A stretch of DNA of 64,000 bases from a virus. Under the pieces are notes generated by a model. That model ran no database searches and had not been told where the DNA came from. It saw only the letters and a program-made list of their open reading frames with translations. Numbering within the stretch: the stretch's first letter is position 1; each line of letters starts with the position of its first letter. The stretch covers positions 1-64,000 of the IMG/VR virus record IMGVR_UViG_3300021171_000005; one strand, 5' to 3'. Both the position numbers and the translations under genes were made by a program. Of the stretch, positions 3,891-63,655 are shown piece after piece.

Positions 3891-3924
3891 TGTACTCAGA
3901 CAATTGATGTATTAATTACACAGT

Positions 3925-3940
3925 TGTCCGGATGTGGACA
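3925..3940. promoter_or_regulatory. Palindromic site TGTCC-GGATGT-GGACA
   Basis: Intergenic member of the dispersed palindrome family, ending 1 nt before the ATG at 3942. Binding here would cover the ribosome or start region of that gene. Confidence 0.5.
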
Positions 3941-3941
3941 A

Positions 3942-13016: not shown

Positions 13017-13403
13017 ATGACTCTAGAAGAGAAACAGCTCGAATTACTTGAAAAGAACAAGCAAAGACGAGCAAAGCAGAACAGAAAGAACGCATCGGGG
13101 CCGCGCAAGAAAGAAGAACGCGGCCCTCGTATGCGCCTCCGGATTCTCTCATTAGAGCAGGTATTGCTCAATAAATTGTTGTACGTTGAAGACCCCCGGC
13201 AAATCGGATACATCGCTCACATCATTGATTGTGAACGTCGCAAACAACCGATTCCCAGCTTTCAAGAATTCTATTATCGACTTGGTGTGCAAGATGAATC
13301 CGAATCCCAAACGTCAGAGCAATTCCAGATTCGAGAAACACACTCCGAATACTTGTCCAGTTCCGGACAAACCAACCGGGAAACAGTATCCGTGGACGGA
13401 TGA
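13017..13403 (+). CDS. Hypothetical basic N-terminus, helical protein
   Basis: 128 residues, MTLEEKQLELLEKNKQRRA, with a Lys/Arg-rich coiled region over the first 45 residues, a helical middle and a Ser/Gln-rich tail. A palindrome copy (13354-13369) is read as LSSSGQ near the C-terminus. It overlaps the next start by ATGA. A nucleic-acid-binding role is possible but unproven. Confidence 0.5.
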   Translation: MTLEEKQLELLEKNKQRRAKQNRKNASGPRKKEERGPRMRLRILSLEQVLLNKLLYVEDPRQIGYIAHIIDCERRKQPIPSFQEFYYRLGVQDESESQTSEQFQIRETHSEYLSSSGQTNRETVSVDG

Positions 13404-23468: not shown

Positions 23469-24371
23469 ATGTCTGATGAGAATATTGTTACACCGGAACC
23501 CGCAGCAGAAGTCGTGCCGGTTCCCGAAGCGCCCAAGGAATTCAGATTCACGTACCAGCCGAAAGATGAGAACGGAAACAACCTCGGAGGGCAGCAAGTT
23601 ATCGTAGCCGCCAATCCAGAGGAAGCGCTTGAGAAGATGGCCGCGCAGAATTCCGAACTGGTGCGTCTGAACCGCAAGCTCAATAAAGATATCCGTCTCG
23701 GATCGATTGTTCAAGATCAGATTCCAGACGACGCGCCCCGCGTTAGGGAGGGTCAATACGAGGTTGTTCCTCGACCCTTAACGGCGGAAGAACGATTGCA
23801 ACTTCCACAGGATTTGAATGATCCTGAGAAGTGTGACGCGGCTTACGACCGGTTGCTCGAAGCTCGCATCGGCAGTCCAGAGGCAATCCGCCAAGCTCTG
23901 ACAGTTACGAAACAGCGTATCGCGCAGATGGACGCGCAGGCTCAGGCCGAGGCTTTTGTCCGCAGCACCCCAGATTATTTCGTTTGCCCGGAAAATTTCG
24001 AAACAATGGCAAACTGGATGATCAAGAACGATCTCGAACCGGTCAAAGCTAATTTCAAGCTAGCGTATAAGACTTTGGGTCCTGATGGCGCGAATCTACT
24101 TCGCGAGAAGCCGGTTGTCGAAGCTCCGAAGGTCGAAGCTAAGTCCGAGCCAGTTGTGGAACCAGCGCCCAAGCCGACCCCCCGCCCTGTCGCTTCTGGA
24201 TTGACCCGTAACAATTCTTCCGAAGGTGGGACGCCTCGCAGTACTTCTGCTTACACAATCGCGGACATTGAGAAACTGTCCAGCGAAGAATACAAGAAGA
24301 AATTGCGCACAGAAAAAGGCTTCAAAGAAGCAGTAGATAAGCTCTATTCTCCTAAACCAGCAGTGCAGTGA
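23469..24371 (+). CDS. Putative scaffolding protein
   Basis: 300 residues. Acidic, Pro/Glu/Ala-rich ends and a helical middle (EEALEKMAAQNSELVRLNRK), with a basic Lys-rich C-terminal helix (EEYKKKLRTEKGFKEAVDK). This layout and the site between portal and major capsid fit a scaffold. SD AAGGAT lies before the ATG. The sequence family was not identified. Confidence 0.6.
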   Translation: MSDENIVTPEPAAEVVPVPEAPKEFRFTYQPKDENGNNLGGQQVIVAANPEEALEKMAAQNSELVRLNRKLNKDIRLGSIVQDQIPDDAPRVREGQYEVVPRPLTAEERLQLPQDLNDPEKCDAAYDRLLEARIGSPEAIRQALTVTKQRIAQMDAQAQAEAFVRSTPDYFVCPENFETMANWMIKNDLEPVKANFKLAYKTLGPDGANLLREKPVVEAPKVEAKSEPVVEPAPKPTPRPVASGLTRNNSSEGGTPRSTSAYTIADIEKLSSEEYKKKLRTEKGFKEAVDKLYSPKPAVQ

Positions 24372-24778
24372 TCATCCGACGCTACCAAGACACAGATTTT
24401 GAAGACGCAGATTATCTTCAAAAGGATTTCTATCTTGTCCCCGCATCTCAAGAAGAATTGCGCGACAAGTTAAACAGTCCTTCTTGGGTTGCGGAAGAAG
24501 ACGGTGTTCTGGGCTGCATCATTACTTGTCCAGATGCGGACAAAACATTGATTTGGAGCGTAATCGTCGCTCCCAGCTATCGTGGTATGGGTGTCGGAAC
24601 CCTGCTGATGGGTGCGGCAGAATCGTTCTATCGCGGCAATAAATTGACATTGCACGTCGAACCCGCGAACCCCGCAAGACGATTGTATTTCCGAAGAGGA
24701 TACCGCGCCTCGCGATATATAAAAGACTTCTTCGGACAAGGTTACGACGCAATAGAGATGTACAAATATTGCGATTGA
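24368..24778 (+). CDS. GNAT-family acetyltransferase
   Basis: 136 residues, GTG start overlapping the scaffold stop (GTGA). VAPSYRGMGVGTLLMGAAE contains the R-G-x-G-x-G acetyl-CoA loop; ARRLYFRRGYRA is the usual C-terminal GNAT motif. It may acetylate a virion or host protein. A palindrome copy (24527-24542) is read as CPDADK. A structured RNA starts 2 nt after its stop. Confidence 0.7.
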   Translation: MIIRRYQDTDFEDADYLQKDFYLVPASQEELRDKLNSPSWVAEEDGVLGCIITCPDADKTLIWSVIVAPSYRGMGVGTLLMGAAESFYRGNKLTLHVEPANPARRLYFRRGYRASRYIKDFFGQGYDAIEMYKYCD

Positions 24779-24779
24779 G

Positions 24780-24871
24780 TTGCGCGGCAGGTTTCACCCG
24801 TTTCTGGAGAATAAAAGGGAACTAACCAGAGACACCTTGCCGCCTATAAGAGCGTGGAATAAGCCGCGCAA
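24780..24871 (+). ncRNA. Structured RNA element, copy A
   Basis: A 9-bp closing stem TTGCGCGGC (24780-24788) / GCCGCGCAA (24863-24871) surrounds AGGTTTCACC, an inner hairpin TTTCTGG / CCAGAGA and the segment CGCCTATAAGAGCGTGG. A second element at 26862-26970 has the same conserved segments and a differently sequenced closing stem. It lies in the 373-base gap upstream of the capsid gene. Confidence 0.6.
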
Positions 24872-25151
24872 AGTTTGCAGAAAGTTTGTGGGGGTGGATG
24901 TCAATCCGGACCGTTCAGGGCATGGGTCTGAACTATACCTCAGCTTGATAACGCCTCCACGCGGCGAAGTAGCTGATCCGGCATCCGCCCCGCAATTCAT
25001 AAAGTTTGCCTAGTCTGTCGGATTACAGACAAAGCCCCAACGCCCGCGTGAGGGATTCACCTTGGTCAACTCTTGACTGAGGACGGAACACTGGATCGGA
25101 TTATCCAGCATAGGCCGCCGCGCATAAGAGTAATCCAATTACAGGTGAAAT
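24872..25151 (+). other. Hairpin-rich leader before the capsid gene
   Basis: No gene is seen. Hairpins include GTTCAG / CTGAAC, GTCTGT-CGGATT-ACAGAC (25013-25030) and CTGGAT-CGGATT-ATCCAG (25091-25108); the last two share the loop CGGATT on different stems. This is probably part of one long structured leader or a separate noncoding RNA. Confidence 0.45.
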
Positions 25152-26198
25152 ATGGCATTTTCTCCGGCTGGCAATAACCAGTCAAATCTTCCGCAAAGTA
25201 CTGTGCGGTATTACGACAAAAAGTTCCGCGAGAACTTGAAAGCACAGACACCCTTCGTCGCTTGCTCGGAACGTCTCGACCTCCCGATGAAGAGTGGTAA
25301 TCAGTACAACATGTATATGTACGTTCCGCTGGCTGCGAATACCGCGCAGACCACGGAAGGTACGGTTGGCAGCTCCATCAGCGTCTCGGTTCTGAACACT
25401 TCCGCGACGATTGGTGAGTACGCGGATTACGCAAACTTCTCCAGCCTGAGCCTCGCAACCGCTATCGACAACACTGTCGAGAACGTTGCCCGCGAAATGG
25501 CGTATCGGCTGGGTGAATCGCTTTCCGCTCTCGTCCGCGCAACTGCGGATGGCGCGAACAGCGTTGATTCGTCCGTTCTGACGAAGCTCTCGGCGACCTC
25601 GACCACGAGCTTTACCACTCTGTCCCTGACCTATATCCGTAACGCCGTCCAGTCCTTGGCCGGTCGTTCGGTGCGGCCTTTCGACGAAGCGAGCAAGAAC
25701 TTCGCAGGTGTCATCCATCCCTTCGCTCTTGGCGACGTGCTGGCGGACAACTCGAACGACTCGCCAATCGATATCTTGAAGCGCACCCCGCAGGGTTATT
25801 CACGGTTGGATGAGATTATCTCGACCGATCTGACGGAAGTCATTGAGATTCCGACCTCCGGCGTGAGCTTCTTCCAGTCGAACCTCGTCACTACGACCTC
25901 GAACTATAACGACGGAACGCACGGCGCAGTTACCGGCCTGACCGCTCTCCGCACGTATATTTTTGGTCGGGATGGCATTTTTTCGATCAATTTGGGCGCG
26001 ATGGGCGACACCGGTTACGGCGATGGCGAATGGCGCAATATTAAATGCAACATTGTGCAAAATGCCGAGCCGTCAGTGGCGGATCCCTCGGGGTTAATTC
26101 CGGGGTGGACGAGCTACAGAGTTCACTTCACAACCAGCCTTGGGCCAGACACCACAATTAGGATACGCGAGATTGACGCAGCCAGCGCGATCTCCTAG
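25152..26198 (+). CDS. Major capsid protein, N4-gp56-like
   Basis: 348 residues. RYYDKKFRENLKAQTPF near the N-terminus, LPMKSGNQYNMYMYVPL and ATIGEYADYANFSSLSL match the pattern of the N4 gp56 family of capsid proteins (HK97 fold). Codons are regular and GC is slightly higher than in neighbouring genes, as expected for a highly expressed protein. Preceded by a long structured leader, which may control its level. Confidence 0.8.
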   Translation: MAFSPAGNNQSNLPQSTVRYYDKKFRENLKAQTPFVACSERLDLPMKSGNQYNMYMYVPLAANTAQTTEGTVGSSISVSVLNTSATIGEYADYANFSSLSLATAIDNTVENVAREMAYRLGESLSALVRATADGANSVDSSVLTKLSATSTTSFTTLSLTYIRNAVQSLAGRSVRPFDEASKNFAGVIHPFALGDVLADNSNDSPIDILKRTPQGYSRLDEIISTDLTEVIEIPTSGVSFFQSNLVTTTSNYNDGTHGAVTGLTALRTYIFGRDGIFSINLGAMGDTGYGDGEWRNIKCNIVQNAEPSVADPSGLIPGWTSYRVHFTTSLGPDTTIRIREIDAASAIS

Positions 26199-26295
26199 TA
26201 AATAAAGGATTTATAAATCCTGTATTTTACTATTACTAATTGAAACCTTTTCGTGTATAGTGGCATCCAATCGTAATGAAAGGATGCTACTATAC

Positions 26296-26826
26296 ATGAA
26301 ATTTCAAGATTTAACCGGCCAACGATTTAACATGCTGACGATTGAGAAATACGTTGGCAAAAACAAAACGGGACAATCTCTTTGGCAGTGTAAATGTGAT
26401 TGCGGGCAAGAGAAAATCGTAGCCGCTCATCACATGAAATCTAATAATGTTACAAGTTGCGGAAAGTGCGCTCGCGTCAAAAGCCACACCCGCCACGGAA
26501 TGTCCTATACAGTCGAATGGAATTCATTTCACGCAGCGAAGAAGCGCTGTAAGCCGGAACAAGCGGATCGATACCCAGATCATGCAGGTAAAGGCATAGA
26601 GTTTAGATTCAACAGTTTTGAGGAGTTTTACGAGGAAGTCGGGCCGCGCCCCGAGCCTAAATTTGCGTACTCTCTGGATCGCTGGCCGAATCCATACGGT
26701 CACTACGAAAAGGGCAATATTCGCTGGGCTACGAAAGAGCAACAAGCGTTAAATCGTGCTTGCGAATGGTGTTTGGCTCGTAATAATGTGCTAGAATTGT
26801 CAAAGGGATTAGCAAATATATCTTGA
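26296..26826 (+). CDS. HNH/AP2-type mobile-element-like protein
   Basis: 176 residues. FQDLTGQRFNMLTIEKYVGK, WQCKCDCGQEKIV with TSCGKC, then GPRPEPKFAYSLDRWPNPYG and NIRWATKEQQALNRA match a common phage family with a zinc N-domain and an HNH-like C-domain, seen as inserted genes. The ATG at 26296 has AAAGG about 12 nt upstream. It lies between the capsid gene and a strong promoter whose TTGACA overlaps its stop codon. Confidence 0.65.
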   Translation: MKFQDLTGQRFNMLTIEKYVGKNKTGQSLWQCKCDCGQEKIVAAHHMKSNNVTSCGKCARVKSHTRHGMSYTVEWNSFHAAKKRCKPEQADRYPDHAGKGIEFRFNSFEEFYEEVGPRPEPKFAYSLDRWPNPYGHYEKGNIRWATKEQQALNRACEWCLARNNVLELSKGLANIS

Positions 26827-26851
26827 CAAATGCTGTACGATAGCGTATAAT
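26823..26851 (+). promoter_or_regulatory. Near-perfect sigma70 promoter
   Basis: TTGACA (26823-26828), exactly 17 nt, TATAAT (26846-26851): both hexamers are consensus. The predicted start near 26858 is about 4 nt before the closing stem of the structured RNA, so the transcript begins with that element. Confidence 0.85.
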
Positions 26852-26861
26852 GTTTATATAA

Positions 26862-26970
26862 ATGCGGGGCGGGTTTCACCGGACCACCCGAGTAATTAGC
26901 GAACATGGGATGGGCGGCGACCGCCCGAGGTTCGTAGTACCGCCTGAAGAGCGTGGAATAGGCCCCGTAT
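26862..26970 (+). ncRNA. Structured RNA element, copy B
   Basis: Closing stem ATGCGGGGC (26862-26870) / GCCCCGTAT (26962-26970), 9 pairs with one G-U. Inside are GGGTTTCACC, a CGAAC / GTTCG stem, a GGGCGG-CGA-CCGCCC hairpin (26912-26926) and CGCCTGAAGAGCGTGG. Compared with copy A, the core is kept while stem bases change in pairs. It forms the 5' leader of the cytochrome mRNA, or a separate small RNA. A short CTCCC / GGGAG hairpin follows. Confidence 0.65.
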
Positions 26971-27062: not shown

Positions 27063-28163
27063 ATGAAGAAACTATTGTTATTCGTTCTCTTGATTCCGGG
27101 CCTAGGTTGCTATCATAAAGTTGCGCGGCCCGTTGTCAATGTCCCTCCGGGTCTTATCGAAGCACCGCAAGGATTTGATACCCTAACCAACGGTTTTGTC
27201 AGCCAGCAGCGGCATGATGACGACCGTGATCAGTTCGAAGAAGATGCTGTTCTTCCCCAGCTCGGCCCCGCTTACAATGCCCGAGCCTGCGCGGATTGCC
27301 ACGATACCCCGATTAGCGGGGCGGGCAGCCAAGTTTTCGAACACAGAATTGCCCCCGACGATAAGGATGATCCTATTGCGGCGGCTACACTTGTCCATGA
27401 CCGGACAACTGACCCCGAAGCCCAGCAGAAATCCGTATTTGATGCAATTAATGCTCTCCGGCCTTCTCTGAGTTTGATGGGTGATGGATTCGTCGAAGCT
27501 GTTCCGGATGCTGAGTTAATCGCAATTGCGGGGCAAAATGGCGGGCAATTCATTATGGTGCCCGTTCTTGAATCACCCGGAACGGTTCATGTGGGCCGAT
27601 TTGGAGTTAAAGATCAGCACGCGAGTCTTCTTAGTTTTGCGGGGGACGCGGATTTCAACGAAAAGGGCGTGGAAAATCGCCTCGTGAAAGCCACCACAAA
27701 TAGCAACGGAATCGAAGATCAGGAACCGACTTGCGGGGACGGCGGGGAAGATATCGATTGCTACGCCCGATTCATGCGGGCGTTGAAGGCCCCTTCGCGG
27801 GGACCATTGACCGCGCAAACCGCGCTTGGCGAGAAGATATTCGATGGCATTGGCTGCGTTAATTGCCATGTCGATACATTGTTTACTCCGAAGTATGTAT
27901 TTCATCCCTTTGGAGATTATCTCTTGCACGATGTCGGTACGGGCGATGGAATTCAACAGGGTGATGCTCCTGCCAACAAAGTTCGCACGGCTCCTTTGTG
28001 GGGATTGCGGGCTCGGGCAAGATTCCTTCATGATGGCCGGGCGTTTGACTTGCAGACCGCAATCGCCGCGCACGGTAACGAAGCCTCTTCGGCAAGTAGC
28101 AATTTTAAACAGCTTGACCCCACCGGAAAGCAGGCTCTGCTGGCGTTTCTGAATTCTTTGTAG
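27063..28163 (+). CDS. Di-haem oxidoreductase (DHOR/DUF1111-like) lipoprotein
   Basis: 366 residues. Signal segment KKLLLFVLLIPGLGC with a Cys at 16 suggests a lipoprotein, although the lipobox is not canonical. Two c-type haem motifs, CADCH (76-80) and CVNCH (265-269), and a FLHDGRA motif (321-327) mark the di-haem oxidoreductase family, relatives of MauG and bacterial di-haem peroxidases. It should be anchored in the envelope and matured by host cytochrome c machinery. The ATG at 27063 has GAGGA upstream. Its own promoter and structured leader precede it. I know of no such phage gene. Confidence 0.8.
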   Translation: MKKLLLFVLLIPGLGCYHKVARPVVNVPPGLIEAPQGFDTLTNGFVSQQRHDDDRDQFEEDAVLPQLGPAYNARACADCHDTPISGAGSQVFEHRIAPDDKDDPIAAATLVHDRTTDPEAQQKSVFDAINALRPSLSLMGDGFVEAVPDAELIAIAGQNGGQFIMVPVLESPGTVHVGRFGVKDQHASLLSFAGDADFNEKGVENRLVKATTNSNGIEDQEPTCGDGGEDIDCYARFMRALKAPSRGPLTAQTALGEKIFDGIGCVNCHVDTLFTPKYVFHPFGDYLLHDVGTGDGIQQGDAPANKVRTAPLWGLRARARFLHDGRAFDLQTAIAAHGNEASSASSNFKQLDPTGKQALLAFLNSL

Positions 28164-41400: not shown

Positions 41401-42134
41401 CGGATATGGGTTTCTACACGTCTGATAAGCGATTCGTTATTCTGAATCCGTCCTCGGGTCCGTCAGACGTTGGATTTACGATTGGCAATGTAATTACGTC
41501 GATCAGTCCTACTGCTGCGTATGTTACGTGGCATTCTTCTGGGGAAGATTCGGCGTGGTTCATCTCTAATGGTTCGACTGGATGGTACCGAGTCAGCCCA
41601 ACTCCTTCACCGGAGCAGGGAATCACATGGTCACCTTTTGCCTCCATTGTTGGCGGGGCGAAGGCGGTCCAATCAATTGAAACCTCGCCGGGCGTGCATA
41701 ATCTTTTGTTGGGACCAACGACCTCCGGTCCTATTCTGAATCGCAGCATCAGTTCATTTCAGGATAATAGCAGCAACTATTCGTGGTTTGCGACGGTCGG
41801 CAGTCATGTGCTGGCGAATCCCGGACAGCTCGCCGAAGTGATGTTCTTGGCAGTGGATTCAGTGGCAATCGGAACCCCACCGTCGATTAGTGTAGTGTTC
41901 GACGAGGCCGTGCCTTATTACACGGGAGCATTCGAGCCGATTAATAACCCGGTGTACGATCCACCGACAACTCATCCTAGTGCCTCTCTTTATCAACAGA
42001 GATTCTATTTGTCCGAAACTGGACAACCAGCGGTGTGTCGGTCAATGCAGTATAGGATCGATTTCCCGGCGGAAAATGTGCAAAACGAAATCTTAAGCTG
42101 CACCGTCTTTGGCGCGTTGCTCGTGGAGCAATAA
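38418..42134 (+). CDS. Large tail protein (tail tubular B / nozzle-like)
   Basis: 1238 residues. The ATG at 38418 in TAATG with the previous stop is preferred over a start at 38343 inside that gene. PPRYAPLYTSRFWSGLNTNR and GDALIDGSNCEITPRLTLAR near the start are typical for tail-nozzle-type proteins of podoviruses. The remainder is Ser/Thr/Gly/Asn-rich beta structure with several Ig-like stretches. Longer than usual for gp12-like proteins, implying inserted domains. Confidence 0.55.
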   Translation: MTGSLQLAGAQSQKPPRYAPLYTSRFWSGLNTNRSPLRSAGSAYEERYLGTRGDALIDGSNCEITPRLTLARRPGNPVYNSSTFGPVDAFYSFREFNATTEQIRVMVDETTALYDGTANSRILVFTKSSGAGQSFMQSVGNNLFFANGIDQKKWVQTLFTRNASGALPNIANSTTLSTVSTPFLTTYVIDSNGNLQQLLATSLTTISNVAYTAPTLTLTVGSTAGITVGQNYVIWNMATAVWLDGMTINVVTASGTTVTATLVNAAHANYASAADTGNFTVIGGTPSAVTGGSVPTWNTTVPAAGNTPPWQGGFTVDGTAIWVNRGNPVENWGIAQTTSPPTVTVGSASAAWHANTYYSLPGVVIDTRSSNNNIWQATTTGTTGSTISFPTSPSVGDNFTEGTIVWHCVANTASAVWASHTNFASGALIVETAGGTPCLFRLSIAQPSVQLSTLMTAKFVAHSASGVFDGDWGGSVGAPVLFGTATPLVIAATATNINSHLWNRYNTSLQPIVVYTLNGAGESSAATSTTPWAGATTNWEMMLFGTMTVNQAGPVSFLVGHNDGFYLGMDGGATYVSGPNTGLSTRTLSPWNGYPLVGGNNVPGDFSAGETLTVNCPTAGTYNFEWAFAQKDTFQVFTVTANGAQITPTPLETGTSIPSFPGFSKAFAPNYANIVETQIGNPAVPSVPGSKAYEWDNLGPVTDFAWRAKVAVTLANTTITDPNNNTEAPFEAGVSGTVTPTFATGLNQLTNDNPNLVWINKGPASAPTPGTISAFNGGFQYVVALVNTMTNTVSNASGFSVATGNFIGASGITITGGLPATANIDPQSDWVAIFRTTDGQTTPFLIPGTGNSIYTVPLSQYLQNGYVDSTPDTGLNNLIEAPIAGENTPPANGAQNLTYHLSRIFFSVGNTVYWTSGPDAPVGNGIEGVAPANTQVFPSLVRRLVPTTAGLFVFTVSDIYVIIGQGTASNPIQPAYPYLQGIGLLNYNALDINGADMGFYTSDKRFVILNPSSGPSDVGFTIGNVITSISPTAAYVTWHSSGEDSAWFISNGSTGWYRVSPTPSPEQGITWSPFASIVGGAKAVQSIETSPGVHNLLLGPTTSGPILNRSISSFQDNSSNYSWFATVGSHVLANPGQLAEVMFLAVDSVAIGTPPSISVVFDEAVPYYTGAFEPINNPVYDPPTTHPSASLYQQRFYLSETGQPAVCRSMQYRIDFPAENVQNEILSCTVFGALLVEQ

Positions 42135-62944: not shown

Positions 62945-63655
62945 TTAGAATCTATGCCCGAGGGCGAAGCCGATACCAATTCCGATGCCAACCTGCTTTA
63001 ATGCTGTTTTAACTTTTCCAAAGAATGTTGGCTTCGCTACGGCCAATTCTGCTTTACATGCATCATTTGCTTTCTTGATTTGATCATTGAGTCCTTGAAT
63101 TTGCGCGGCCTGCGTTGTATTCACCGCCGCGCAACTCGTTAACTGCTTATTGAGATTATCCTCCACTGTATGCCCAGCCAATACCTCCTGATGCAGCGAG
63201 TCAACCAATTCTAAGTTCTGTACGGTCGTCACCCCGGCTTGTCCAGATACGGACAAATTCTCTCCGGCGGGTTGCACATCTTGGGGATTGGCCGAACTAA
63301 TCAGCGTCCGCCACCTAGCCGCCAGCTCCGCAATTGTAAGAGTTGAATCTACTTTCTGTTGTTGCGCGGTTTTGTCCTTCAGCGCCGCAATTTGCGTAGC
63401 AATTAACGCATTTTGCGTAGACATTTGCGCGGCAAGTTGGGTGTACGCTTGTTGCGAGGCGGCGACTTGCTGGGCGAGCTGCTGGTTCTTGGCTACCTGA
63501 TCATCTAACACTTGCTTCGCAACGGCAGCGGCAGCCACAGCTTCGTCGTGTCTGTGGTTCTCAAACTTATTCAACAAGAATAGAAATACACCGAGCCCCG
63601 CAAGAATCAGGAAAATCCTCTCGTGAGCTTTTATGAATGTAATCCAGCCAATCAT
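62945..63655 (-). CDS. Membrane-anchored coiled-coil protein (spanin-like)
   Basis: 236 residues. Hydrophobic segment about 13-28 (IFLILAGLGVFLFLLNKF), then a long Ala/Gln coiled coil (AVAKQVLDDQVAKNQQLAQQ), and a Gly-rich hydrophobic end (GIGIGIGFALGHRF). The shape resembles an inner-membrane spanin (Rz-like). A palindrome copy (63240-63255) lies inside and is read LSVSGQ on the coding strand. Confidence 0.5.
   Translation of the reverse strand: MIGWITFIKAHERIFLILAGLGVFLFLLNKFENHRHDEAVAAAAVAKQVLDDQVAKNQQLAQQVAASQQAYTQLAAQMSTQNALIATQIAALKDKTAQQQKVDSTLTIAELAARWRTLISSANPQDVQPAGENLSVSGQAGVTTVQNLELVDSLHQEVLAGHTVEDNLNKQLTSCAAVNTTQAAQIQGLNDQIKKANDACKAELAVAKPTFFGKVKTALKQVGIGIGIGFALGHRF

What the first reader, a model, noticed from the sequence alone, without database searches (positions are those of the whole stretch)
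26823..26970. Promoter placed so the transcript begins with the structured RNA
A TTGACA-N17-TATAAT promoter predicts a start near 26858, four bases before copy B. The next gene is the di-haem oxidoreductase, about 90 nt after the element. The RNA is either a cis-regulatory leader for that gene or a stand-alone small RNA.
Basis: partly seen in the sequence, partly recalled or inferred. Interest (0 to 1): 0.7.

Follow-up and report, generated by a model that had tools for sequence, protein, structure and literature searches.

The report
Unnamed small RNA family in phages
The promoter is real and drives a small folded RNA that belongs to a previously unlisted family carried by many unrelated bacterial viruses, often inside their clusters of transfer-RNA genes, so it is most likely a free-standing RNA and not a switch for the gene next to it.

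Summary
A perfect TTGACA-N17-TATAAT lies at 26823-26851, the only exact match in the window (0.06 expected), 10 nt before the 9-bp closing stem of element B (26862-26970). B and copy A (24780-24871) belong to an RNA family with no Rfam 15 match. I found 29 distinct copies in 27 phage contigs. All share a GGUUUCACC...AAGAGCG core inside a closing stem whose nine pairs all co-vary (covariation score 0.697 against 0.148 shuffled). Neighbouring genes differ from phage to phage. Six of 28 copies lie within 15 nt of a same-strand tRNA gene. In the nearest relative a closely similar promoter drives tRNA-His followed by the RNA, with no di-haem oxidoreductase beside it; an unrelated copy has its own 11/12 promoter followed by tRNA-Leu. 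The 'leader of the oxidoreductase' reading is disfavoured and the 'stand-alone small RNA' reading supported. What the RNA binds or does is not shown; my best guess is a trans-acting RNA of the general kind of GOLLD and ROOL (phage RNAs near tRNA islands), but far smaller and unrelated by every test run here. No transcript has been seen, and no cultured phage was found to carry it.

The parts
26823..26851 (+). sigma70-type promoter, TTGACA-N17-TATAAT (-35 at 26823-26828, -10 at 26846-26851); predicted start about 26858
   Evidence: 12 of 12; only exact match in the window; conserved at the syntenic place in G005
26862..26970 (+). RNA element, copy B (109 nt)
   Evidence: model R1 match 70.1 bits; it was part of the model's seed; identical in records of L003 and L016
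26862..26870 (+). closing stem P1 of B, 5' arm
   Evidence: pairs with 26962-26970; covariation of P1 in the family
26962..26970 (+). closing stem P1 of B, 3' arm
   Evidence: as above
26872..26880 (+). conserved GGTTTCACC, 5' half of P2
   Evidence: invariant in 28 of 28 rows; present in all 5 members found by a pattern that did not ask for it
26912..26926 (+). extra hairpin special to B (GGGCGG/CCGCCC), in the variable part of the element
   Evidence: predicted fold
26940..26960 (+). conserved CCGCC and AAGAGCGTGGAATA, 3' half of the core
   Evidence: alignment; freeing the leading AA brought only chance matches
24780..24871 (+). RNA element, copy A (92 nt): P1 24780-24788 / 24863-24871, GGTTTCACC 24790-24798, AAGAGCGTGGAATA 24848-24861
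   Evidence: fold z -3.5
26260..26826 (+). HNH endonuclease gene upstream of B; its stop codon overlaps the -35 box
   Evidence: PHROG 374, E 1.9e-39
27063..28163 (+). di-haem oxidoreductase gene downstream of B (neighbour, probably not the target)
   Evidence: PF06537, E 2.7e-19; distribution
25152..26198 (+). major head protein gene, downstream of A (neighbour)
   Evidence: PHROG 1357, E 9e-17
24368..24778 (+). GNAT acetyltransferase gene ending 1 nt before A (neighbour)
   Evidence: PF00583

Best explanation
B is a stand-alone structured RNA of phages, 92-109 nt in the two window copies. Host sigma70 RNA polymerase starts about 4 nt before the closing stem P1, so the transcript begins with the RNA; the mature molecule is probably the stretch closed by P1, cut or trimmed from a longer transcript much as phage tRNAs are. 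Copy A, which has no promoter of its own, would be released from the messenger between the acetyltransferase and head-protein genes. The conserved core (GGUUUCACC, CCGCC, AAGAGCGUGGAAUA) held by P1, P2 and the P3 hairpin would then bind one widely conserved host partner in trans during infection, plausibly in translation or tRNA handling, since copies live in tRNA clusters. Shown: promoter sequence, family, P1 and P3 covariation, contexts. Inferred: transcription, trimming, trans action. Guess: the partner (about 0.3 for translation or tRNA handling).
For: Family of 29 distinct copies in 27 records. P1: 8.71 of 9 pairs against 3.98 when arms are swapped between members, 0 of 1000; every P1 pair changed on both sides in 11-18 of 28 sequences, covariation score 0.697 against 0.148. 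P3: 0 of 1000 swaps. Neighbouring genes unrelated. tRNA gene within 15 nt, same strand, in 6 of 28. Relative G005: promoter, tRNA-His, RNA in one row. L063: TTGACA-N17-TATTAT 8 nt before P1, with tRNA-Leu 5 nt after the element. Promoter-like sites of 9 of 12 or more just before P1 in 3 of 28, 0.30 expected, p 0.005. The copy most like A lies after the head gene in G005, and the A site there is about 119 nt shorter: the RNA moves without its neighbours.
Against: No transcript was seen. Most copies (25 of 28) have no clear promoter directly before them, so separate production rests on processing that I infer. P2 never varies apart from one mismatch, so it is not proven as a helix. 21 of 28 copies have no same-strand tRNA gene within about 100 nt. 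B could also be read as a 5' leader of the oxidoreductase in this one lineage. The function is unknown.
Confidence: 0.72

Rival explanations
1. Cis-regulatory leader (riboswitch or protein-binding leader) that controls the di-haem oxidoreductase gene from the same transcript.
For: The promoter starts the transcript just before B and the gene lies 92 nt downstream on the same strand. In many copies the next gene is on the same strand and close.
Against: Downstream genes differ: head protein, SSB, Erf, endolysin, HNH, methyltransferase, unknowns. In 11 of 28 the nearest called gene downstream is on the opposite strand (mechanical ORF calls, at least one doubtful). Only 3 of 28 RNA-bearing records hold an oxidoreductase homologue and only the window lineage has it next to the RNA. 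No terminator-like site was found just after B.
Confidence: 0.1
2. Self-cleaving or otherwise catalytic RNA whose conserved core is the active site; it would process the transcript, for instance tRNA arrays.
For: A very conserved core in variable stems, and its presence inside polycistronic RNA units.
Against: No Rfam ribozyme model matches. A closing stem kept whole in all members suits a retained molecule better than a cleaved one.
Confidence: 0.1
3. A DNA-level hairpin (origin, recombination or packaging site) and not an RNA.
For: Copies move between places in related phages and HNH genes lie beside some of them.
Against: Same strand as the tRNA in all 6 copies within 15 nt; G-U pairs in P1 and two invariant G-U/U-G pairs in P2, which do not pair in DNA; promoters pointing into the element.
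Confidence: 0.04

Closest known systems
GOLLD and ROOL RNAs
   Same: Phage and prophage RNAs, function not established, often near tRNA islands (passages of PMC12286853 read).
   Different: They are large (GOLLD often over 800 nt, same passages) and form cages; this one is about 90-195 nt, and no Rfam model, theirs included, matched it in any scan.
manA and wcaG RNA motifs
   Same: Structured RNAs found in phages (passages of PMC2864571 read).
   Different: Those lie in 5' UTRs of particular gene sets; this family has no constant downstream gene, and no Rfam match.
Phage T4 stable RNAs C and D of the tRNA cluster (recalled from memory, no call)
   Same: Small stable RNAs of unknown role made within a phage tRNA cluster.
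   Different: Sequence not compared; a paper search for them found nothing.

Membership tests
Sigma70-type promoter | TTGACA-like and TATAAT-like boxes 16-18 nt apart | tested here: met
   12 of 12, spacer 17
Sigma70-type promoter | Transcription starts about 7 nt after the -10 box | not testable with these tools
   No transcript data
Any Rfam 15 family | Covariance-model score at or above the family's gathering score | tested here: not met
   Window: 0 matches. Lenient scans of the B region, 10 family loci and two single members gave only chance-level hits apart from the neighbouring tRNAs
GOLLD / ROOL | Match to the Rfam model | tested here: not met
   As above
GOLLD / ROOL | Encoded in phages, often near tRNA islands | tested here: met
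   6 of 28 within 15 nt of a same-strand tRNA gene; tRNAs in 15 of 27 records searched, two of those 15 without the RNA
tRNA | ARAGORN or RF00005 match | tested here: not met
   ARAGORN 0 in window; RF00005 hits only neighbours
5S, 16S or 23S rRNA mimic | Profile similarity to rRNA above shuffles | tested here: not met
   Best -0.4 bits against E. coli rRNA; shuffles reached 4.8
Cis-regulatory leader | Constant class of downstream gene across members | tested here: not met
Cis-regulatory leader | Expression platform (terminator or sequestered start) after the element | tested here: inconclusive
   No terminator-like site just after B; start-site sequestering not tested systematically
Self-cleaving ribozyme | Site-specific cleavage | not testable with these tools
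   No bench data

The most novel reading that the evidence does not exclude
A phage RNA family that travels like a tRNA gene among unrelated phages and acts in trans on a universally conserved part of the host's translation or tRNA-surveillance machinery, for example as a decoy or modulator that protects phage translation from tRNA-cutting defences.
Probability: 0.15. Interest if true: 0.85.

Novelty: new variant of a known kind. Interest (0 to 1): 0.62.

Why it matters
A compact, deeply conserved RNA core in phages of about 40 to 215 kb with unrelated gene content, absent from Rfam, implies a common target worth finding. It is small enough for quick biochemistry, unlike the giant phage RNAs that also live near tRNA genes, so it could make the old question of why phages keep non-tRNA RNAs in tRNA islands testable.

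Tried and rejected
Leader of the oxidoreductase: rejected on gene context. Mimic of 5S or of the 3' end of 16S rRNA: suggested by eye, rejected by profile search and by lenient Rfam scans. Self-cleaving ribozyme classes: no Rfam match. A third copy in the head-gene leader (about 25060-25140): weak resemblance by eye; not returned by the model search of the whole record.

Chance pattern hits dropped before counts, for lack of P1 and low model scores: L026, L027, L028, L033, L034, L060, L064, L065, L067, L069, L083, L084, L085, L086. With model R2 the best of these reached 20.1 bits (L033) and 16.1 (L034); whole members score 55 or more with R1. Dropped as duplicates: L010, L016, L017, L031/L052, L054, L070. 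L071 is cut at the end of its locus and is in no alignment; its whole copy was later seen at 74.8 bits. L063, with a 195-nt element, scored 55.0 bits in one search but only a partial 40.9-bit match with R2 in another. In one search the P3 motif finder mis-set at least three members (L040, L057, L062) and left out L046; they were not repaired by hand.

Named phages: BLAST of four elements or regions and model searches of 8 whole named phage records, Tunturi 1-5 among them, found no copy. The BLAST is a weak test for an RNA with such short conserved stretches. The genome-contig scan used one narrow pattern, so absence from bacterial genomes is provisional. Paper searches for the family, its motifs or its kind; none returned it in the listings.

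Full report
What was checked. The window is the first 64,000 bases of a 93,865-base virus record. It is the only exact TTGACA-N16-18-TATAAT in the window on either strand, against 0.06 expected. In the 14 kb scanned around it, weaker promoter-like sites are no commoner than in shuffles (16 found, 16.4 expected), so the perfect match is the informative one. The predicted start, 26857-26859, is about four bases before the closing stem of element B, 26862-26970. The -35 box overlaps the stop codon of the upstream HNH gene.

The element is real and belongs to a family. A self-comparison of the window gave copy A at 24780-24871. A pattern made from what A and B share (GGTTTCACC, gap, AAGAGCGTGGAATA) hit 21 stretches of IMG/VR; relaxed patterns added more. 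After removing duplicates and chance hits I count 29 distinct elements in 27 records, A and B included; 28 are in alignment A4. The 5' motif was not imposed on all of them: one search searched with the 3' half only, and its five new whole members (L061, L062, L063, L066, L068) all carry GGTTTCACC. Freeing the leading AA of AAGAGCG brought four new stretches, all chance matches. CCGCC is CAGCC in L048 and CCACC in L056.

Structure. The nine pairs of P1 all co-vary: each pair has changed on both sides in 11-18 of 28 sequences, the covariation score over P1, P2 and P3 is 0.697 against 0.148 +/- 0.018 in shuffles (0 of 500) and at most 0.137 with slid partners. Swapping arms between members drops P1 from 8.71 to 3.98 pairs of 9 (0 of 1000). 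The counts come from an alignment fitted to a model that contained P1, which favours it; the swap test used fixed offsets from the motif instead. P3, a short hairpin after GGTTTCACC whose loop carries an AGNGAA-like motif, also passes the swap test (0 of 1000, 27 of 28 members) and has changes on both sides in all four pairs. P2 (GUUUCAC with GUGGAAU) never varies except one mismatch in L058, so it is plausible but untested. By folding energy alone, A stands out (z -3.5) and B does not (z -1.6): the evidence for B is comparative.

Context. The nearest genes differ from copy to copy: head protein, di-haem oxidoreductase, SSB, Erf-like protein, endolysin, HNH endonuclease, DNA methyltransferase and many unknowns. 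In 11 of 28 the nearest called gene downstream is on the other strand (mechanical ORF calls, and the one in L059 is doubtful because small + strand ORFs overlap it). In 6 of 28 a tRNA gene on the same strand lies within 15 nt: tRNA-Arg 3 nt before L046, tRNA-Gln 4 nt before L051, tRNA-His 3 nt before L059, tRNA-Tyr 7 nt after L058, tRNA-Leu 5 nt after L063, and tRNA-Arg genes 12 nt before and 4 nt after L068 (distances to the core as set in that script). My arithmetic from the tRNA numbers puts the chance expectation well under one. Records with at least 20 tRNAs include G002, G010, G013, G017, G023 and G029. The window itself has no tRNA.

The nearest relatives are the most telling. G005 (96 kb; portal 80% identical; head protein 97% identical) has the same order: head gene, an HNH gene, then TTGACA-N17-TATCAT, then tRNA-His, then the RNA, then small ORFs, some of which have counterparts after the oxidoreductase in the window. 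The oxidoreductase gene is not there; a 41% identical one lies elsewhere in G005, about 5 kb from that phage's other RNA copy. The copy in this G005 unit is the closest to A (81% over 94 nt), while the place where A sits in the window is empty in G005: 117 nt against 236 nt between aligned flanks. So the RNA changes place without its neighbours. Tunturiibacter phage Tunturi_3, the nearest named relative (portal 57%; host Tunturiibacter, an acidobacterium, PMC11924767 listing and passages), has the same acetyltransferase and head genes and no RNA. An unrelated member, L063, has an independent 11-of-12 promoter 8 nt before P1 and a tRNA-Leu after it. Over the family, promoter-like sites of 9 of 12 or better just before P1 occur in 3 of 28, with 0.30 expected at random places of the same loci (p 0.005); the random places include coding DNA, which may flatter this.

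Distribution. Portal relatives of the window phage occur in 6 of the 25 other RNA-bearing records searched (25-80% identity; that list also held L004 and Tunturi_3, which have portals but no RNA); 19 show none, though some of these are fragments. A scan of one genome each for 84,980 bacterial and archaeal species with one pattern gave two chance hits. No named phage was found to carry the RNA.

What it most likely is. A stand-alone, trans-acting phage RNA, started at or processed to its closing stem. The family has no match in Rfam 15, and the paper searches I could run did not return it; most subscription papers are not held, so 'not in print' is not claimed. In setting it resembles GOLLD and ROOL (passages of PMC12286853), but it is several times smaller and unrelated by model search. 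Its conservation among unrelated phages suggests one common partner; that this is in translation or tRNA handling is a guess from the tRNA neighbourhood alone.

Limits.

Noticed in passing
window, 44 matches on both strands, e.g. 1595-1612, 3924-3941, 13353-13370, 24526-24543, 27391-27408, 42009-42026, 63239-63256: A palindromic repeat TTGTCC-N5-CGGACAA, 44 matches with up to 2 mismatches (many sites counted on both strands) against 1.5 expected. Scattered over the phage genome, some inside genes, one (27019) between B and the oxidoreductase. Looks like operator-like sites or a phage-wide hairpin; not explained.
   Followed up: partly
window 25002-25151: The leader of the head-protein gene is similar to that of G005 (about 85% over an aligned stretch that includes the gene itself) and carries GGGATTCACC...CATAAGAG, which recalls the RNA core by eye; the model search did not return it. 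It may be a separate leader element.
   Followed up: partly
window 27063-28163: A di-haem oxidoreductase (PF06537) with a lipoprotein-like start in a phage genome; relatives in 4 of 30 phage records searched. Unusual cargo.
   Followed up: partly
L077:4197-4916 and window 26260-26826: An HNH gene in the window and an apparently different one in the relative (not matched to the window's HNH protein) occupy the same place before the same promoter, as if that site were a repeated landing place for such genes.
   Followed up: no
L063:11563-11757 (- strand): The longest member (195 nt) carries large extra hairpins inside the variable part, showing that the core tolerates big insertions.
   Followed up: no
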